Positions 262 through 8,813 of a stretch of DNA of 49,035 nucleotides are shown piece after piece. Every line of letters begins with the position of its first letter. Within the stretch, counting starts at the first letter, position 1. The notes beneath the pieces are model-generated. The model was not told where the DNA came from. It did no database searches and saw only the letters and a list, made by a program, of their open reading frames with translations. The stretch is from Gammaproteobacteria bacterium. GTDB lineage: Bacteria > Pseudomonadota > Gammaproteobacteria > Xanthomonadales > Marinicellaceae. Both the position numbers and the translations under genes were made by a program. The stretch lies in NCBI GenBank assembly GCA_024280395.1, contig JAJRQG010000012.1:1-49035 (forward strand), read 5' to 3'.

Positions 262-297
262 AAAAAAAAGCCCATAATTATTTCTATCATGGGCTTT
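262..297 (-). terminator. Rho-independent terminator after the nuclease gene
   Basis: A 9-bp perfect stem (AAAGCCCAT at 267-275 with ATGGGCTTT at 289-297) is followed on the minus strand by an eight-base T run. It lies about 40 bases past the stop codon of the nuclease gene and should end its transcript. Confidence 0.85.
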
Positions 298-337
298 AAT
301 TTAACTATAATATTGTGTTGAATTAGTCCATTAAGAC

Positions 338-2596
338 TTATTCAAAACCATTCTTAAACATAGCATCAAATACACAACTGTTCTGAAAAATACAAGCCAC
401 CCATTCTGGATGATCGATAAATGGATTGCGGTTTGTTTGATAGGAAAAAACCACTTCATTGCGTTGTCGTTCTATGTCATCAACAGGGTCATCTATATGC
501 CATTGTAATAAAGTACTGAGCTTACCCATGTATGCAGGAGATCCCGCGGTACCTTGAATCAAACTTACGTTGTCAGTTAAAATTAAATCCGGTTCAGTTG
601 TACCAGTAGAGTCAACCTCTCCAAGTCCTTCGTAACGCACATCCATATAGAACATGGCTCTTGCAACATCGCCTTTTCTGAAATTCCAAGCTTCAAAAAC
701 TGTATTGTTTGTCCAGTTTGAATTACCAGGATAAGTACTACCAGTATTGCCACCTTCTGTTGCACCATCACCATCACCATCGTACTGAGTTGTTTGTAGT
801 GATGCATTTGTACAGGTGTTATCTATACTGGGGTTGCAATTATCATAATATTTATTTCCACGACTTGAATTATACCCTGCATCTGACATCATTAAGTGAT
901 GTGCATCTGTTCTTGGTGCATTATTGGTTGGATTTGAGAATCCCAAAGATTTTGGCCATGTATGTTCACGATTATAAGATTGCTGCCCACCACCATTATA
1001 GGTGTAGGAAATATTTCTATAAACCATCCAGACTTTCTCAGCTACCATGTTATTTAAATCTACAGCTGTGTTGTGGTCTTCATCTGCAAAAGACAGTATA
1101 TCCCATGTATCTGTTGTCCCACCAGAATAAGGGAAAGAGACATGACCTTTAATAATATCATGCAAAGTTGTTCTTAAAGTTATAGGGGTTGAAGGATCTG
1201 CATTAATATAATAAGGAAGGACAGGACAAGTATTGTTAATCGATCCTGCAGTTGGGGTTACTTGCATATAGGTTGAAGTATTCAACACTCCACCTGCTCC
1301 ATTTGAACAACGTGCATTGGATTCAGTGGCAACGGCAGAATTTCCATCTTCGTTGACTTGAGGTTCTCCACCATTGAGTAAAGCCAATAACCCACCATCA
1401 TCAGGTGTGCCCATGTGATAAACCATGGCATCGATAATTTCACCGACAAAATCCACATCATTGATGCTATCGCCATTGTTAAAATTGCTGATATTTTTAA
1501 AATAAATCGCCACAGCACTGGCATCATCATTGAGGTTGCCACCTAAGGCTAGGTCAGGTGTAAGGCCTGCGGAGTCACTGATTAAAAAATAACCATTGCC
1601 ATCCATTGTATTTCCTGATAAATCAACAGTCCTATAAATTGTATCATCGCTGCCCTGATAGAAAACCAAAGTTACATCATTTAAACTGGCACCAATTGTG
1701 CCATACAATTCAATAAAATCAGCTGAGCCAATGGCATCTACTTCATTGATTATAATATTTGGAGCCACGGGAGGAGGAGGCGTACCTGCAGCATTAGGAG
1801 AAGGCATGCCTTCATAAAAGGTTAAATTCAAATTTTCAGAGGTTTCATCACTGCCATTGATTCCATTGCCGCCAGTTTGAGTTTCAATGCCTTCATTTAA
1901 GGATTCATCTCTTTGCCAAGTCATGCCAGCAGCATGAGCAATGGCAGAAATAACGGCTTGACTGCCAATTCCTATATCATTTTGATAAGTGCTGGTTAAT
2001 GCGTCGCCATCAGGACCATCAATTGCAATACCTGTTTTGTCAATGGCTTCATTTTTATCTCCCCATAGGACATAATCTAGATCTTGTACAAGGTCAGTTA
2101 TTCCATCCCATGAATAGAGAACAGCAACTTCACCACCTGATAATCCCCCTTGACCACCGATCGAACCTGCAACTGCTTCCAGCATATCAGGAATGGCATC
2201 AGGTGAAGCTGGTACCTCTTCATAAAGCTCATAAGTTGGATCTTCTCCATAAGTTGTATTGAAGTTGGTAGACCCATTTAAAGCTATAGTTTGATATTCA
2301 CCGGGACTGATCATGGCTCCATTGGGAAATCGTGCATGGAAATCAGCAAAACCACCGCCACCACCGCCACCTAAAACAATTTGATAGTAATACGTTCCAG
2401 CACCACCTGCAAAGGTGGCATCGGTTAAATAAACATTGGTTAAATCAACCGTGGTCGCTCCACTGTTGTGAATTTCAATAAACTCACCGAGCGTTGGCGT
2501 AACAGCAATTTCGGTAATCAACAAGTCTGAAACATCGGATAATGCAATGTTAGACACTAAAAGTGTAACAATTGTAAAGGCAATAATTTTTTTCAT
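338..2596 (-). CDS. Secreted endonuclease I-family nuclease with two lamin-tail-like domains
   Basis: This 752-residue protein has a signal peptide (about residues 1-20). Residues 24-60 (LLITEIAVTPTLGEFIEIHN) and 280-345 (IIINEVDAIGSADFIELYG) each look like the first strands of a lamin-tail domain, an immunoglobulin-like fold common in bacterial extracellular nucleases. The catalytic part spans about 460-735. It carries NREHTWPKS (542-550, with the presumed general-base His545), DAHHLMMSD (564-572) and NSSRGNKYYDNC, the pattern of the beta-beta-alpha-metal endonuclease I family (E. coli EndA, Vibrio Vvn). A poly-Gly run sits near residue 76. The protein ends in FDAMFKNGFE, a tail shared with other exported proteins here. 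It probably degrades DNA or RNA outside the cell for nutrients or matrix remodelling. Family assignment is firm; the role is inferred. Confidence 0.9.
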   Translation of the reverse strand: MKKIIAFTIVTLLVSNIALSDVSDLLITEIAVTPTLGEFIEIHNSGATTVDLTNVYLTDATFAGGAGTYYYQIVLGGGGGGGFADFHARFPNGAMISPGEYQTIALNGSTNFNTTYGEDPTYELYEEVPASPDAIPDMLEAVAGSIGGQGGLSGGEVAVLYSWDGITDLVQDLDYVLWGDKNEAIDKTGIAIDGPDGDALTSTYQNDIGIGSQAVISAIAHAAGMTWQRDESLNEGIETQTGGNGINGSDETSENLNLTFYEGMPSPNAAGTPPPPVAPNIIINEVDAIGSADFIELYGTIGASLNDVTLVFYQGSDDTIYRTVDLSGNTMDGNGYFLISDSAGLTPDLALGGNLNDDASAVAIYFKNISNFNNGDSINDVDFVGEIIDAMVYHMGTPDDGGLLALLNGGEPQVNEDGNSAVATESNARCSNGAGGVLNTSTYMQVTPTAGSINNTCPVLPYYINADPSTPITLRTTLHDIIKGHVSFPYSGGTTDTWDILSFADEDHNTAVDLNNMVAEKVWMVYRNISYTYNGGGQQSYNREHTWPKSLGFSNPTNNAPRTDAHHLMMSDAGYNSSRGNKYYDNCNPSIDNTCTNASLQTTQYDGDGDGATEGGNTGSTYPGNSNWTNNTVFEAWNFRKGDVARAMFYMDVRYEGLGEVDSTGTTEPDLILTDNVSLIQGTAGSPAYMGKLSTLLQWHIDDPVDDIERQRNEVVFSYQTNRNPFIDHPEWVACIFQNSCVFDAMFKNGFE

Positions 2597-2678
2597 AATA
2601 AACCTGGAAAATGATGGGGTGATTATATTACTCGAAATTTATGACAATTTCATTAAATTTATGGATTTGAATATTGCT

Positions 2679-2718
2679 AAAAAGAAAAAAGGCGTTATTA
2701 GCAATGTCCAATAACGCC
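2679..2718 (-). terminator. Rho-independent terminator after the doxX-like gene
   Basis: GGCGTTATT (2691-2699) pairs perfectly with AATAACGCC (2710-2718). On the minus strand the stem is followed by a T-rich stretch, 26 bases past the stop codon of the DoxX gene. Confidence 0.85.
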
Positions 2719-2744
2719 CTTTGTGCTTTTAATTTAAGGTGTTT

Positions 2745-3422
2745 TTATGCTTGCGGAGTCATCAGCTTATTTGCAATTAATGCAAGTAGTCCAGCAATAG
2801 CTAGACCACCACCAAAATATGGCATAACAAAAGTTAAAGGAACTCCGACAGCTAAGAGCGCTAAACCCCACATACCCAAATCTGAATTTTGTGCATCACT
2901 GTCTGTATAATGAGTCAGTTTAGCCAATAAATTATCTAAACTAAATTTTCCTGCACCGCCAAATAACAGTGGCATCAACATAATGACATACAACAAAGGC
3001 AATTTATAATTTCCAGCACCATTGTTAGAAATAGAATAACCTTCCCACAGTTGACTTAAACTGCTATAACTTTCAGGCCAGTGTACTGCTGCTGTTGCAA
3101 CAACGGTAATAATAATAAGTGAAACAGCCGCAAAACGAGTAAATAAACCAAATAATATCAGAAAAGCACCAAGCATTTCTCCCCACATTGCCATACTCCA
3201 ACTAAAGTCAGCACTGATTGAATTAAAAGGAAATGGGAATGAATCATGAATTGATGCAAACCAGTTGCCTTCAGATCCACCATCATATTTCATTTTACCT
3301 GCTTCCCAAAACTCCCAAAAGATAATGAGCCTTAAAAATATTTGTGGAAGAAAAGTACCAGCAGCATTGAGTCGTGTGACTAGCGCCTGCCAAAATGTTT
3401 TACTGCTATTGACTATGTTCAT
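2745..3422 (-). CDS. DoxX-family integral membrane protein
   Basis: This 225-residue protein has about five hydrophobic segments (roughly 22-38, 80-112, 141-156, 183-198 and 203-217). The N-terminal pattern LPQIFLRLIIFWEFWEAGKMKYDG is typical of the DoxX family, whose members often sit in redox or metal-stress loci. It lies 134 bp downstream of, and co-directional with, the EGKCG repeat peptide. DoxX proteins accompany EGKCG-type precursors in Hvf/bufferin loci, so a membrane role in peptide maturation, export or electron supply is plausible. A terminator between the two genes means that either readthrough or a separate promoter is needed. Membership of the family is secure; the functional link is inference. 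Confidence 0.85.
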   Translation of the reverse strand: MNIVNSSKTFWQALVTRLNAAGTFLPQIFLRLIIFWEFWEAGKMKYDGGSEGNWFASIHDSFPFPFNSISADFSWSMAMWGEMLGAFLILFGLFTRFAAVSLIIITVVATAAVHWPESYSSLSQLWEGYSISNNGAGNYKLPLLYVIMLMPLLFGGAGKFSLDNLLAKLTHYTDSDAQNSDLGMWGLALLAVGVPLTFVMPYFGGGLAIAGLLALIANKLMTPQA

Positions 3423-3501
3423 TAAATGTTCTCTCGTGTTGTTTTATTGAATTAACTAATAAGACCCAAATTATAATAGGTCATTGCATTTATTTTAAAC
3501 A

Positions 3502-3533
3502 AAAAAAAGACATCATAGTTGATGTCTTTTTTT
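3502..3533. terminator. Terminator hairpin between the repeat-peptide gene and doxX
   Basis: A-rich AAAAAGACATC pairs with GATGTCTTTTT around a six-base loop (3515-3520). The stem is flanked by A and T runs on both sides, so it could act in either direction. It lies 24 bases past the stop codon of the EGKCG peptide gene. Confidence 0.8.
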
Positions 3534-3556
3534 ATTCACTGAATTCAGTCTATGGA

Positions 3557-4093
3557 CTAACCACATTTTTTCTCAGCTTTTTTGTCACCACATTTCTTGT
3601 CGGCTTTCTTATCGCCACATTTCTTGTCAGCTTTCTTGTCGCCACATTTCTTATCGGCTTTTTTATCGCCACATTTGCCTTCACCACATTTCTTTCCAGC
3701 TGCTTTCTTGTCACCGCATTTGCCTTCGCCACATTTCTTTCCAGCCGCTTTCTTGTCGCCGCATTTGCCTTCACCGCATTTTTTGCCAGCTGCTTTCTTG
3801 TCGCCACATTTACCTTCACCGCATTTTTTGCCAGCCGCTTTCTTGTCGCCACATTTACCTTCACCGCATTTTTTGCCAGCCGCTTTCTTGTCGCCACATT
3901 TCTTTTCAGCTTTCTTATCGCCGCATTTGCCTTCGCCACATTTCTTATCACCACCTTTTGTTGCATGAACAGAAGTATCGGCATCAACTTGTGCAAAAGG
4001 ACTGTTTGATGCGTTGGCTGTAGAAACGAAGCTAAAAACAGCAAAAATTAATGCTGCAAAAGTTACAAATGTTAATCTAGATTGAGTTTTCAT
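3557..4093 (-). CDS. Exported Cys/Gly/Lys-rich EGKCG-repeat peptide, HvfA-like RiPP precursor candidate
   Basis: This 178-residue protein has a clear signal peptide (1-28, cut after STANA), a short linker, and then an almost pure repeat of D, K, A, G, C and E. Residues 68-142 are five exact copies of DKKAAGKKCGEGKCG, and residues 143-178 are four copies of a nine-residue unit (DKKADKKCG, the last with AE). I count six EGKCG motifs and 17 cysteines. EGKCG is the motif whose cysteine is modified by multinuclear non-haem iron oxidases (DUF692) in HvfA/bufferin-type copper-binding peptides. The next gene encodes DoxX, a usual partner. No DUF692 or DUF2063-type gene is in the window. A good Shine-Dalgarno (GAGAGGAAAA) precedes the start. 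Reading frame choice is firm because only this frame has a signal peptide; the chemistry is inference. Confidence 0.8.
   Translation of the reverse strand: MKTQSRLTFVTFAALIFAVFSFVSTANASNSPFAQVDADTSVHATKGGDKKCGEGKCGDKKAEKKCGDKKAAGKKCGEGKCGDKKAAGKKCGEGKCGDKKAAGKKCGEGKCGDKKAAGKKCGEGKCGDKKAAGKKCGEGKCGDKKADKKCGDKKADKKCGDKKADKKCGDKKAEKKCG
3560..3892 (-). repeat. In-frame tandem repeats inside the EGKCG peptide gene
   Basis: Positions 3668-3892 hold five 45-bp units, each encoding the same 15 residues. Positions 3560-3667 hold four 27-bp units encoding nine residues. Synonymous third-position differences between units show the amino-acid repeat is conserved beyond recent duplication. Both unit lengths are multiples of three, so copy-number change would keep the frame. 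Confidence 0.9.
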
Positions 4094-4189
4094 ACGTTTT
4101 CCTCTCTTAAATATTTATAAAAAAAATAATATGTTAATATATTATTGAAAGCCATCATACCTTGTTTTATCTAAAATTATTCACAAAAG

Positions 4190-4206
4190 TTTAAAAATTT
4201 TAAACA
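4190..4206. promoter_or_regulatory. AT-rich palindrome between the divergent repeat-peptide and trpD genes
   Basis: GTTTAAAAATTTTAAAC is a perfect 17-base palindrome, about 97 bases upstream of the repeat-peptide start and 131 upstream of trpD. It could be an operator for either gene. AT richness makes chance formation easier, so support is modest. Confidence 0.3.
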
Positions 4207-4282
4207 AATTTAATATTCAACTTAGGAAACAAAGACCACAGTAATGAATTAATATTTCAGATTTAATCATTATTATTTAGCT

Positions 4283-4288
4283 ATAATT
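4283..4288 (+). promoter_or_regulatory. Possible -10 element of the trp operon
   Basis: A consensus TATAAT lies 49 bases before the trpD start. I see no convincing -35 hexamer at the usual distance, so this is only a candidate promoter. Confidence 0.3.
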
Positions 4289-4336
4289 AGTATTATCGCT
4301 AAAATATAGAGCACACTTAACATTTAAAAAATACTT

Positions 4337-5353
4337 ATGTCAGCAATTCAACAAGCCCTTAGCATACTCGGCGAAAAGCTATCACTACCCATTGGGTTAA
4401 TGAGCAAAGTGATGAATCAAATCATGGACGGCGATGCAACTCAAGCACAAATTGGTGCTTTATTGATGGCATCAAAGATTAATGGTGACACTGTCCAAAC
4501 CATTACAGAAGCAGCCAAGGTGATGCGTGACCGAGCTTCAAAGGTTAAAGTAGAAGGCGATTTTGTTATTGATACCTGCGGTACGGGTGGAGATGGCATT
4601 GGTTTATTTAATGTTTCAACCGGAGCCGCCATTATCGCAGCAGCAGCAGGCTGCAATGTTGCAAAACACGGCAATCGTTCGGTTTCAAGCACTACTGGCT
4701 CAGCAGATGTTCTTGAAGCTGCTGGATTAAATTTAAATTTAACCGTTAAACAAATAGAAAATTGTATTGATCAATGTGGTATCGGTTTTTTGTTTGCACC
4801 AGCCCACCATGCTGCAACCCGTCATGCAGTTGCTCCCCGAAAAGAAATAGGTTTGCGAACATTCTTTAATCTTTTAGGTCCACTGACCAATCCTGCAGAT
4901 GCACCCAATCAAATTATGGGTGTCTTTGCCAAAGATTGGATGCATAAAACAGCAGAAGTATTGAAAGAATTGGGATCACGGCATGTGATGGTGGTTTTTT
5001 CTGAAGATGGCATGGATGAAATTTCTATCTCTGCTCCTACGTTTGTTTGTGAACTTAAAGCCGGTAAAATTTCAGAATATACTATCCAACCTGAAGACTT
5101 TGGCGTTAAAACACAATCTTGTGAAAGTTTGATTGTCAAAAGTGCCGAAGAAAGCTTGGCTTTAATCAATCAAGCGTTCGCCACAGGAAAAGGAGTAGCT
5201 GCGGATATATTGGCACTCAATGCAGGTGCCGCAATTTATGTTTCAGGTAAAGTTAATAGCATGCAAGAAGGTGTTAAGTTAGCACAAGGTGTATTACAAT
5301 CGGGTTTAGTAGAAAATAAATTTAAACAATTAATTGAGTTAACAAATGTCTGA
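4337..5353 (+). CDS. trpD: Anthranilate phosphoribosyltransferase
   Basis: TrpD joins anthranilate to phosphoribosyl pyrophosphate in tryptophan synthesis. The 338 residues match the family length. The PRPP-binding motif GTGGDG, the KHGNRSVSSTTGSADVLEAAG stretch and the anthranilate-site segment HHAATRHAVAPRKEIGLRT are all visible. It heads a compact operon: its stop codon overlaps the trpC start by eight bases (ATGTCTGA). No trpE or trpG lies upstream in this window; the neighbouring gene is the divergent repeat-peptide gene. No leader peptide with Trp codons is apparent before it. Confidence 0.96.
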   Translation: MSAIQQALSILGEKLSLPIGLMSKVMNQIMDGDATQAQIGALLMASKINGDTVQTITEAAKVMRDRASKVKVEGDFVIDTCGTGGDGIGLFNVSTGAAIIAAAAGCNVAKHGNRSVSSTTGSADVLEAAGLNLNLTVKQIENCIDQCGIGFLFAPAHHAATRHAVAPRKEIGLRTFFNLLGPLTNPADAPNQIMGVFAKDWMHKTAEVLKELGSRHVMVVFSEDGMDEISISAPTFVCELKAGKISEYTIQPEDFGVKTQSCESLIVKSAEESLALINQAFATGKGVAADILALNAGAAIYVSGKVNSMQEGVKLAQGVLQSGLVENKFKQLIELTNV

Positions 5354-6137: not shown

Positions 6138-7351
6138 AACAAAGAATCGACACGTTTAGGCGGTTTATCAAAGAGGTCGGCAACCAATTTGTAGAAAACG
6201 AGACAGCACTGTCTGCATCCTCCTTGGCCTATACTACCCTGTTATCACTTGTTCCTTTCATGACTGTTTTGGTCACAATTTTTGCTGCCTTTCCCCAATT
6301 CGGAAATGTCAGCGATCAAATACAAGACTTTGTCTTTTCAAATTTTGTTCCTACTGCAGGTGAAGTGGTACAAGAATACATCAACGGTTTTGTTGATAAA
6401 TCACGCAATCTGAAACTCAGCATGTCACTGTTCGTATTTGTTACTTCCATTATGATGATGTACACCATGGAAAAAGCCCTAAACCGCATCTGGGATTCCA
6501 AACCATCCGGCAATGTTATTAAAAAAATACTGGTTTATTGGACCGTACTAACCATGGGGCCACTATTGGTTGGCGGTGGATTGGCATTGACTTCATACAT
6601 GTTTAGCTACTCTGGTCTGGCTGGCATTAAAATATATTTATTGAAATTTCTACCTGTCATTGCTTCAACGGTGGGCTTTTTCTTAATTTATTTAATTGTC
6701 CCCAATCGAAAAGTTAGTTGGAAATCAGCTTTAATTGGCGCATTGGTCGGAGCAATCTTATTTGAGATGGCAAAACGGGGATTTGCCTGGTACATCACTA
6801 CTTTTCCAAGTTATCAGCGTGTTTATGGTACTTTAGCTACCATACCCATATTCTTATTCTGGGTGTACTTATCATGGAATATCATTTTATTAGGTGGCAC
6901 TATTGCTGCCACTCTTGAAACCTCTCGTTGGAGAGGTCATGTTCAATCTTATAGTGGTAATCACAGATTTTTAGTGGTTATGGATGTTCTCTACCAATTG
7001 TGGCATGCGAGTAAAAAAGGCAAAACCATAACCTTACATGAAATTTTCAACAGACTAGAAAATGTACCTGACAATGAACTGCATGAACAGTTGGACTGGC
7101 TAGAGGAGAATAATATTATTCAAATCAACCAAGACGGAGACTATGTGTTGCTTCGAGACTTAGACAGCATCAGTATTGGTAAACTTTATACAATGGGCCG
7201 TTTCAGCTTGCCAATGAACACAACAAATAATTTTGATTTTTTTGAACCATTTATTAAAGAAATCTGGTCTAAGATATTTCCTAATATGAAACAATCGGTA
7301 AAAACCGTATTTAAACAACTAGAAAAAACAGAGAACAACAATGAAAATTAA
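6131..7351 (+). CDS. YihY/virulence factor BrkB family membrane protein
   Basis: This 406-residue inner-membrane protein carries the YihY/BrkB core. The N-terminal signature ALSASSLAYTTLLSLVPFMTVL is followed by about six hydrophobic segments up to roughly residue 265, including the GTLATIPIFLFWVYLSWNIILLGG region. The family was once misnamed ribonuclease BN and its biochemical role is not settled. A cytoplasmic C-terminal extension of about 130 residues looks like a small winged-helix-like region (EIFNRLENVPDNELHEQLDWLEENNII). The gene overlaps trpC by seven bases and the following TlpA-like gene by eleven, so it is part of the trp operon, which is an unusual partner. Confidence 0.9.
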   Translation: MLKQRIDTFRRFIKEVGNQFVENETALSASSLAYTTLLSLVPFMTVLVTIFAAFPQFGNVSDQIQDFVFSNFVPTAGEVVQEYINGFVDKSRNLKLSMSLFVFVTSIMMMYTMEKALNRIWDSKPSGNVIKKILVYWTVLTMGPLLVGGGLALTSYMFSYSGLAGIKIYLLKFLPVIASTVGFFLIYLIVPNRKVSWKSALIGALVGAILFEMAKRGFAWYITTFPSYQRVYGTLATIPIFLFWVYLSWNIILLGGTIAATLETSRWRGHVQSYSGNHRFLVVMDVLYQLWHASKKGKTITLHEIFNRLENVPDNELHEQLDWLEENNIIQINQDGDYVLLRDLDSISIGKLYTMGRFSLPMNTTNNFDFFEPFIKEIWSKIFPNMKQSVKTVFKQLEKTENNNEN

Positions 7352-7883
7352 TATCATCTTAATACTACTGATAATTTTAAGCAGTTGTAGCCAAGAAAAC
7401 CAAGAAAGCCAAAGCAGCACCGACTCGACTGAATCAACTCAAGACCAAATAAACAAACTTCAAATTGCAGAAGAAAAAGGGTTTGATTTCAGTTATCCTG
7501 ACTTAGAAGGAAAGCAAGTAAAGTTATCAGACTATCGCGGTAAATGGGTTGTAGTAAACTTTTGGGCAACTTGGTGTCCACCTTGCCGCAAAGAAATACC
7601 TGATTTTGTTAAATTCAAATCCCTTTACAGTGATAAAATAGAAATTCTGGGCATCAACAATGAAGATGCTGACAATAGCGACATTCAAGATTTCGTTTTT
7701 GAATACGAAATCAATTATCCAGTGATGCGTGCTGATGTTTACAATCCCAGTGATTTTTCAAGAAAAAACACCATGGGATTACCAACAACTGTGATTTTCA
7801 ACCCTCAAGGTATTGAAGTAGCAAAACGAGTCGGACCCATGCACTTTGATGATTTGGTTGATATCATCAAACCTAACTCTTGA
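7341..7883 (+). CDS. TlpA-like lipoprotein thiol-disulfide oxidoreductase
   Basis: The 180-residue product has a lipoprotein signal with lipobox LSSC (lipidated Cys16), a Ser/Gln/Asp-rich linker to about residue 45, then a thioredoxin fold with the redox motif WATWCPPCRKE (Cys79 and Cys82). The cis-proline region is GLPTTVIF. It is probably anchored in a membrane facing the periplasm and reduces disulfides, for example in cytochrome c maturation, but no ccm gene is near. It is the last gene of the operon, overlapping the YihY-like gene by eleven bases. Confidence 0.92.
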   Translation: MKINIILILLIILSSCSQENQESQSSTDSTESTQDQINKLQIAEEKGFDFSYPDLEGKQVKLSDYRGKWVVVNFWATWCPPCRKEIPDFVKFKSLYSDKIEILGINNEDADNSDIQDFVFEYEINYPVMRADVYNPSDFSRKNTMGLPTTVIFNPQGIEVAKRVGPMHFDDLVDIIKPNS

Positions 7884-8072: not shown

Positions 8073-8813
8073 ATGAAAAAAATACTCACAGTATTATTTT
8101 GCTTAAGTATGTTACCAGCATTAAGTTTTGCTGAAGAAAAAAAACCAACTCTATTGGCAGATGTTTGGTCAATAACACCCAATTATGGGCAAGAGTCAGA
8201 ATTTTACTCTGCTCTCAAAGAACACATTAAATTTCGCAAAGAGAAAAAAGACCCAAGAGAGTGGAATATCTACAACCAAGTTGTAGGCAATGATCTTAAC
8301 ACTTATGTGATAAGAGCTTGTTGCTTTGAATGGGAGGCACAAGATAGTTATATAGAATGGGGACAAAAGGAAGGCGTTAACCAACACTTTAATTCAACAG
8401 TTGGTCAATATGTTGCTCATGCTTCACATAACCTATCTATTTTGGACCAAAAAAACAGTTACTGGTCGGATGATGTCGATGCTAGCTATGTAGGAGTCAC
8501 GAGCTATAAGTTGAAAAATGGTTCTAATAAAAAATTTGATAAAGCACTTGAATCAATTGTTGATATTTTAAAAGACAATAAGTGGCCAAGAAATTTTGCA
8601 TTCTCATATCCTGTAACAGGTGAAACAAATCGCATGACTATCGCCACACCTTATAAAAACTATGCAGACATGGCGCCGCCAGAAGTCAGCATCTTTAAAT
8701 TTGTTTCCGATCATCTGAAATCTGAAAAGAAAGCTCAAAAAATGTTCGATGATTTTTCATCAGGAATAGAATCTAGCAGTTACTACATTTATCAAGAAAA
8801 TACATCTTTGTAA
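8073..8813 (+). CDS. Exported protein with two probable ferredoxin-like (dimeric alpha-beta barrel type) repeats
   Basis: I do not recognise a named family. The 246-residue product has a signal peptide (1-20, cut after ALSFA). Two halves show the same predicted order of strand, helix, strand, strand, helix: VWSITPNYGQESEFYSAL to FEWEAQDSY (about 29-96), and VTSYKLKNGSNKKFDKAL to YKNYADM (about 146-206). That order matches the small ferredoxin-like units of the antibiotic-monooxygenase/NIPSNAP type, here as a tandem fusion. Two adjacent cysteines (ACCFEW) are notable for a periplasmic protein. A strong Shine-Dalgarno (GGGGG) precedes the start. It stands alone, with its own terminator. Confidence 0.75.
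   Translation: MKKILTVLFCLSMLPALSFAEEKKPTLLADVWSITPNYGQESEFYSALKEHIKFRKEKKDPREWNIYNQVVGNDLNTYVIRACCFEWEAQDSYIEWGQKEGVNQHFNSTVGQYVAHASHNLSILDQKNSYWSDDVDASYVGVTSYKLKNGSNKKFDKALESIVDILKDNKWPRNFAFSYPVTGETNRMTIATPYKNYADMAPPEVSIFKFVSDHLKSEKKAQKMFDDFSSGIESSSYYIYQENTSL

What the first reader, a model, noticed from the sequence alone, without database searches (positions are those of the whole stretch)
2745..4093. EGKCG-repeat exported peptide paired with DoxX but without an MNIO maturase
The peptide has a signal sequence and six EGKCG motifs, the motif modified by DUF692 (MNIO) oxidases in Hvf/bufferin copper-binding RiPPs. Its downstream neighbour is DoxX, a common member of such loci. Neither DUF692 nor its DUF2063-type partner is in the window. 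This could be a split locus, with a maturase elsewhere acting in trans, or an unmodified thiol-rich metal buffer using the same scaffold.
Basis: partly seen in the sequence, partly recalled or inferred. Interest (0 to 1): 0.75.

Follow-up and report, generated by a model that had tools for sequence, protein, structure and literature searches.

The report
Copper-peptide precursor that lost its maturase
A bacterial lineage kept and remodelled the cysteine-rich exported peptide of a known copper-binding system after losing the enzyme that normally modifies it, which suggests that the bare peptide is useful on its own and makes that idea testable.

Summary
Window 3557-4093(-) encodes a 178-aa HvfA-type peptide with an export signal (6 EGKCG among 17 Cys). 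Window 2745-3422(-) encodes HvfX, the DoxX-like member of hvf (oxazolin/captophorin) operons.

No MNIO and no DUF2063 match was found in the 99%-complete genome, so "maturase in trans" is not supported. The absence is genus-wide: HvfA-type repeats in 8 of 11 genus genomes, HvfX in 6 of 11, HvfB-type MNIO in 0 of 11 (one has a bufferin-type MNIO in a separate cluster). Among 398 genomes of the order, 178 carry HvfA-type repeats; the 7 of these without any MNIO all belong to this genus.

Sister genera carry hvfA-hvfB-hvfC-hvfX, in 7 of 19 loci followed by the same LTD/endonuclease gene that follows hvfX here. So hvfBC was lost from between retained genes. Cys in EGKCG is 206/212 in sisters but 49/138 in the genus, while Cys-rich repeats stayed, became more cationic, and lipoprotein copies appear. 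The window's repeat units differ by 16 synonymous and 0 amino-acid changes.

Best reading: an unmodified, thiol-rich periplasmic soft-metal buffer derived from a RiPP precursor. Metal binding is inferred, not shown.

The parts
3557..4093 (-). hvfA-like gene: exported Cys/Lys-rich repeat peptide (178 aa; 17 Cys, 6 of them EGKCG), without its maturase
3656..3874 (-). array of five units (four of 15 aa, KKCGEGKCGDKKAAG, and a last one of 13 aa); adjacent units differ by 16 synonymous and 0 amino-acid changes (position computed from residues 74-146 of the ORF)
3495..3550 (-). stretch with a strong hairpin flanked by A/T runs (terminator-like by inspection) between hvfA and hvfX
   Evidence: sequence; fold -18.6 kcal/mol, z -4.6; the consensus terminator scan did not list it
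3470..3499 (-). sigma-70-like promoter match in front of hvfX (10 of 12 bases); consensus match only
   Evidence: 11 such matches in the region, 6.6 expected
2745..3422 (-). hvfX: DoxX-family membrane protein of hvf operons, 225 aa
   Evidence: NF050144 140 bits; dN/dS 0.06-0.26 in the 6 of 15 genus pairs with finite dS; genus clade 97/97
2687..2722 (-). terminator-like stem-loop (15 pairs) just after hvfX
338..2596 (-). LTD + Endonuclease_1 protein, collinear neighbour of hvfX here and in 7 of 19 sister-genus loci (synteny marker, not claimed to share the function)
4337..5353 (+). trpD (named by inspection), divergent 5' neighbour of hvfA in this genus (synteny marker)

Best explanation
This is an orphaned captophorin/oxazolin (hvf) locus. 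The ancestor carried hvfA-hvfB-hvfC-hvfX; in the window's genus the MNIO (hvfB) and its partner (hvfC) were lost while the peptide gene and hvfX were kept [supported by synteny and distribution]. The peptide carries an export signal, and several relatives also hold a copy with a lipoprotein signal [from sequence, by inspection]. It then works as an unmodified, cationic, thiol-rich periplasmic protein that binds soft metal ions, most likely Cu(I), through its many cysteine thiolates, like a periplasmic metallothionein [inferred]. HvfX has a role that does not require thiooxazoles: it is under purifying selection without MNIO, and in one relative it was found without HvfA repeats [selection and distribution shown; the role itself is unknown, possibly in envelope redox or metal stress].
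For: MNIO/DUF2063 not found in the genome. HvfB-type MNIO in 0 of 11 genus genomes; the one PF05114 hit is BufB-type. HvfC profile: no credible hit in 11 genomes (for its sensitivity see evidence against). HvfA repeats in 8 of 11 and HvfX in 6 of 11. Order: 171 of 178 HvfA+ genomes have an MNIO; all 7 exceptions are in this genus. 19 sister loci hvfABC, with hvfX in 18, 7 followed by the same LTD/endonuclease. HvfX of the genus is one clade, 97/97. Cys in EGKCG 49 of 138 here vs 206 of 212 in MNIO+ sisters, with Cys content kept. Array constrained: 16 synonymous, 0 nonsynonymous; 0 of 9000 neutral simulations gave 0 amino-acid changes. HvfX dN/dS 0.06-0.26 in the 6 of 15 pairs that could be computed.
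Against: I found no metal-binding, expression or mass data for these peptides. EGKCG is still kept exactly in each unit of the window's array, which could mean that something still recognises it. FonBC tolerates many motif changes in vitro (PMC13097082, passages), so motif drift alone does not prove that modification is impossible. The HvfC profile did not detect even the bufferin-type DUF2063 protein of G002, so it would miss distant partner proteins, and PF09836 itself was searched only in the window's genome. The genomes are fragmented assemblies. Three of 11 genus genomes show no HvfA repeats and five no HvfX; G005's exported copy carries a frameshift (real or a sequencing error). The g4 relative G032, with MNIO, is also cationic (+14) and has a lipobox-like signal, so neither trait is tied strictly to MNIO loss.
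Confidence: 0.6

Rival explanations
1. Split locus: an MNIO encoded elsewhere in the genome, or on an unassembled replicon, still modifies the peptide in trans.
For: Antoine et al. raise modification by an MNIO at another locus for unlinked precursors (PMC12452194 section 20). EGKCG motifs persist. G002 has an MNIO in another cluster.
Against: 0 of 6 genus genomes that are at least 90% complete and at most 5% contaminated have PF05114. The HvfB profile finds only the G002 gene at E<=10. That gene is BufB-type, 322.6 bits over its cut-off of 310 and under the HvfB cut-off (228.8 vs 360), beside its own DUF2282 precursor.
Confidence: 0.07
2. Decaying relic: peptide and hvfX are leftovers of a lost pathway and are drifting.
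For: The maturase is gone. G005's exported copy is frameshifted and G007's is cut to two Cys. HvfX is missing from 5 of 11 genomes. [quoted passage not shown]
Against: 16:0 synonymous to nonsynonymous differences between units of an array whose AAG-ending unit was seen only in the window's species among the peptides read. HvfX dN/dS 0.06-0.26. Lipoprotein-type copies with up to 23 Cys. Retention in 8 of 11 genomes.
Confidence: 0.13
3. Replacement: a non-homologous enzyme now modifies the EGKCG half of the cysteines.
For: Within each window unit one Cys remains in perfect EGKCG while the other sits in KKCG.
Against: No new enzyme gene was seen beside hvfA in the loci read; the neighbours are trpD-trpC-yihY-tlpA (named by inspection), hvfX and the LTD/endonuclease. 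No candidate was searched for genome-wide.
Confidence: 0.08
4. Co-option to a non-metal role: a cationic Cys-rich envelope peptide for thiol redox protection or surface binding.
For: Net charge beyond residue 30 is +8 to +27 in six full-length genus rows, against -13 to +5 in twelve MNIO+ g3 rows and +14 in the one g4 row. A DoxX homologue in another genetic context protects against oxidative or sulphur stress (PMC12452194 section 21).
Against: Cys fraction and C-x4-C pairs are kept, which fits metal coordination at least as well.
Confidence: 0.12

Closest known systems
HvfA/HvfBC/HvfX, oxazolin of Haemophilus influenzae (PMC13419390, passages seen)
   Same: Sec signal, KCG/EGKCG repeats with C-x4-C pairs, HvfX in the locus
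   Different: HvfB and HvfC were not found here; many Cys have lost the EGKCG context
Fontiphorin / captophorins (PMC13097082, abstract and passages seen)
   Same: EGKCG-type repeat precursor with a DoxX gene as frequent neighbour
   Different: no MNIO and no PME1 (DUF2063) here, so 5-thiooxazoles are not expected
Buf_EGKCG precursors in genomes without MNIO (67 of 2583 complete genomes; PMC12452194 Table 3, section 20 read)
   Same: the same phenomenon: precursor without MNIO in the genome
   Different: there a count only; here a genus-level loss with synteny, motif drift, selection and lipoprotein-type copies. Whether their 67 overlap with this lineage is unknown
Bufferins Buf1/Buf2
   Same: exported Cys-rich copper RiPP precursors; G002 has a Buf1-type (DUF2282) cluster
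   Different: another precursor family; not the peptide studied here
Metallothioneins and copper storage proteins (recalled)
   Same: would work by unmodified thiolates
   Different: no sequence relationship tested or claimed

Membership tests
HvfA-type RiPP precursor (captophorin/oxazolin) | HvfA-family repeat signature | tested here: met
   NF050137 41.3 bits vs cut-off 19.5
HvfA-type RiPP precursor (captophorin/oxazolin) | HvfA equivalog model NF050188 | tested here: inconclusive
   54.7 vs cut-off 95; the one MNIO-linked sister HvfA tested also fails, 60.9
HvfA-type RiPP precursor (captophorin/oxazolin) | N-terminal Sec signal | tested here: inconclusive
   hydrophobic N-terminus by inspection; no predictor available
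HvfA-type RiPP precursor (captophorin/oxazolin) | Cys mostly in EGKCG | tested here: not met
   6 of 17 in the window, 49 of 138 in 12 genus rows, 206 of 212 in 19 MNIO+ sister rows
hvf / captophorin biosynthetic gene cluster | MNIO maturase (HvfB) | tested here: not met
hvf / captophorin biosynthetic gene cluster | DUF2063/PME1 partner (HvfC) | tested here: not met
   PF09836: none in the window's genome. HvfC profile: none credible in the genus, but that profile is insensitive to distant DUF2063 proteins
hvf / captophorin biosynthetic gene cluster | DoxX-like HvfX | tested here: met
   NF050144 140.4 vs 80
hvf / captophorin biosynthetic gene cluster | 5-thiooxazole on Cys | not testable with these tools
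   needs mass spectrometry
Periplasmic metallothionein-like buffer | Cu(I)/soft-metal binding by thiolates | not testable with these tools
   needs purified peptide

The most novel reading that the evidence does not exclude
A RiPP has reverted to an ordinary protein: after losing its maturase a genus kept, amplified and re-tuned the precursor as an unmodified, partly lipid-anchored thiol metal buffer, so thiooxazole formation is a dispensable improvement of a scaffold that already works, and HvfX serves the cell independently of RiPP maturation.
Probability: 0.5. Interest if true: 0.75.

Novelty: new variant of a known kind. Interest (0 to 1): 0.6.

Why it matters
Whether thiooxazoles are needed for the function of EGKCG peptides, and what HvfX does, are open. 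HvfX is called uncharacterised (PMC13419390, passage), and the authors of the Microbulbifer study were hesitant to assign a copper-protective role to their EGKCG cluster (PMC12538549, passages). Precursors without MNIO have been counted and their meaning only guessed at (PMC12452194 sections 20-21). This genus is a natural maturase loss with retained, constrained peptides, next to sister genera with the full operon. It gives matched pairs for testing what the modification adds, and it argues that HvfX is not only a maturation protein.

Tried and rejected
HvfX structure prediction from the four sequences allowed (window plus L084-L086) gave mean pLDDT 44.7 and was discarded; no fold search was run. 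Search of solved structures with HvfX: one match at E 0.78, taken as chance. Deletion scar at the sister genera's hvf site (after the E2 dehydrogenase gene, named by inspection): that gene was found in 10 of 11 genus genomes and is followed there by an FKBP-like gene (Pfam FKBP_C tested on L094 only; the other nine judged by their first residues). tblastn of HvfB, HvfC and HvfX at E<=10 gave only chance-level matches at these sites (HvfB best E 2.6, HvfC best 0.044 over 25 aa, HvfX 3.4), so no remnant was found. G003 had no E2 match. An upstream alignment of five genus members shows short conserved blocks but no regulator site I could name. The Fisher p-value printed is not used as evidence because the genus is one clade. 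The Pfam matches of the peptide to Glutenin_hmw and HC2, both under their cut-offs, were rejected as low-complexity resemblance. A maturase missed through divergence was judged unlikely because PF05114 and the HvfB profile both detect the BufB-type MNIO of G002, at E 1.4e-94 and 3.1e-53; the HvfC profile does not have that sensitivity.

Full report
WHAT IS THERE. The ORF at 3557-4093(-) encodes 178 aa: a hydrophobic export signal (by inspection), the motif SNSPFAQ, then 17 Cys in Lys/Gly-rich repeats. Six Cys are in EGKCG, five in GKKCG, four in DKKCG and two in EKKCG. It passes the NCBIfam HvfA repeat model NF050137 but not the HvfA equivalog NF050188, which the one maturase-linked sister peptide tested also fails. 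A strong hairpin with A/T-run flanks (within 3495-3550, z -4.6; not listed by the consensus terminator scan) and a promoter-like match (3470-3499) separate it from 2745-3422(-), which is HvfX (NF050144, 140 bits). A terminator-like stem follows hvfX (2687-2722). Separate transcription of the two genes is therefore likely, but inferred.

NO MATURASE. PF05114 and PF09836 give no match in the window's genome (99.3% complete, 158 contigs). In the 11 genomes of the genus PF05114 matches 1 (G002). That gene passes the BufB model and fails the HvfB model, and lies in a cluster with its own DUF2282 precursor and DUF2063 partner. A profile of nine sister-genus HvfB proteins finds nothing else at E<=10. 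A profile of six HvfC proteins finds only a 34-residue match at E 0.24 in G008. It also misses the DUF2063 protein of G002, so it cannot exclude distant partner proteins. HvfA repeats are present in 8 of 11 and HvfX in 6 of 11.

HOW UNUSUAL. In 398 genomes drawn from the order, 178 have HvfA repeats and 304 have an MNIO of any type. Of the 178, 171 have both; the 7 without MNIO are all in this genus, and 0 of 170 outside it lack an MNIO. Outside the family I did not check whether these MNIOs are HvfB-type or linked to HvfA. The 7 are not independent cases: one loss in the genus ancestor is the simplest account. In print, 67 of 2583 complete genomes with Buf_EGKCG lack MNIO (PMC12452194, section 20 read). 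Among the papers listed by my searches (listings capped, open-access library only) I saw no study of such a lineage.

WHERE HVFBC WENT. In the sister genera g3 and g4, 19 of 21 genomes (17 of 18 and 2 of 3) have the HvfA peptide directly before HvfB. The other two, G022 and G030, less complete, gave neither. HvfC follows in 19 of 19 loci, and HvfX in 18 of 19, the other being cut by a contig end. In 7 of 19 the next gene is the LTD/endonuclease that also follows hvfX in the window (54% identical in G013); several of the other loci are short. Within the genus the same gene follows hvfX in 5 of 6 HvfX loci (window, G002, G003, G004, G009, judged by its N-terminus); G001 has another gene there. 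So hvfA-hvfX-LTD in the window is hvfA-hvfB-hvfC-hvfX-LTD without hvfBC. The left flank differs: E2 dehydrogenase in the sisters where it was read, trpD in the six genus genomes where that side is assembled (G000, G001, G005, G007, G009, G010; both genes named by inspection). G004's peptide genes lie on a contig with other neighbours. In the genus the E2 gene is followed by an FKBP-like gene in the 10 genomes where E2 was found, with no hvf remnant. Which left flank is ancestral is undecided. HvfX of the genus forms one clade (97/97), which argues against piecemeal import. No tree was made of HvfA itself, whose repeats do not allow one.

WHAT DIFFERS WITHOUT THE MATURASE. In MNIO+ sisters 206 of 212 Cys are in EGKCG; in the genus 49 of 138 (19 sister rows; 12 genus rows from 8 genomes; truncated rows kept; the first 30 residues of rows not marked as fragments left out; G005's frameshifted exported copy not counted). 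Glu at the first motif position is kept at 30% to 100% of Cys depending on the genus row (47% in the window); elsewhere it is mostly Lys, Ala, Gly or Asp. In an AlphaFold model FonB places that Glu between two Arg, and a substrate with Arg there was not processed; other non-proline changes at positions 1 and 2 were tolerated (PMC13097082, passages). Cys fraction is kept. Net charge beyond residue 30 is -13 to +5 in twelve g3 rows, +14 in the one g4 row, and +8 to +27 in six full-length genus rows. Five genus genomes (G001, G004, G005, G007, G010) carry a copy with a lipobox by inspection. The g4 relative G032, which has an MNIO, also shows a lipobox-like signal and a positive charge, so these traits are not new or strictly tied to the loss.

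SELECTION. Comparing the window's array with itself one 15-aa unit along gives 16 synonymous and 0 nonsynonymous differences over 34 synonymous and 140 nonsynonymous sites; the 9-aa tail gives 7 and 1; G001's exported copy 11 and 0; its lipoprotein 14 and 4; two MNIO+ controls 10 and 0, and 8 and 0. Neighbouring comparisons are not fully independent. In 9000 neutral simulations (three transition biases, 3000 each) none reached 0 amino-acid changes. The AAG-ending unit was seen only in the window's species among the peptides read; G001 has a 14-aa unit ending in AE. The constraint is therefore most likely younger than the loss; that dating is inference. HvfX has dN/dS 0.06-0.26 in the 6 of 15 genus pairs where dS is finite; the rest are saturated. 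G004's HvfX has an odd N-terminus next to a contig end.

HVFX AND PEPTIDE COME APART. G003 has HvfX with no HvfA repeats found, and another gene sits directly before hvfX. G007 has the peptides with the LTD/endonuclease directly after them, and no HvfX match in its genome. As assembled, HvfX therefore has no strict need of MNIO, and in these two genomes the two genes do not need each other.

MECHANISM. Shown: a peptide with export signal, loss of the maturase, constraint on the repeats, motif difference. Inferred: reduced thiolates bind soft metals in the periplasm, most likely Cu(I), since modified relatives bind copper (PMC13097082 abstract and passages; PMC13419390 passages). What remains odd is that one EGKCG per unit is kept exactly. 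It may be the better metal site, or it may mean that an unknown enzyme still acts.

IDENTITY. The genus name was not determined.

Noticed in passing
L001 (G002:C170), 1167-3552: A separate Buf1-type cluster (DUF2282 precursor, BufB-type MNIO, DUF2063, and a sigma-factor-like gene by inspection) in one genus member only.
   Followed up: partly
L031 (G003:C27), 294-728 (-): A PCu(A)C copper chaperone gene and a DUF4139 protein lie beside hvfX in a genome where no HvfA repeats were found.
   Followed up: no
window 7341-7883 (+): A TlpA/ResA-like thioredoxin lipoprotein (by inspection) lies in the divergent block trpD-trpC-yihY-tlpA next to hvfA, seen in six genus genomes; a possible reductant for exported thiols, untested.
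   Followed up: no
window 4094-4336: Short blocks (around GGTCTTT and TTTTGTGAAT) are conserved upstream of hvfA in the five genus members aligned.
   Followed up: partly
L034 (G005) about 9620; L035 (G007) 8323-8466: The exported hvfA copy is frameshifted in G005 and shortened to two Cys in G007, while their lipoprotein-type copies stay long.
   Followed up: partly
L033 (G004:C135), 3165-3365 (-): A fragment of an acidic KCG-repeat peptide (28 D/E vs 9 K/R) lies upstream of the lipoprotein-type copy, opposite in charge to the other genus peptides.
   Followed up: no
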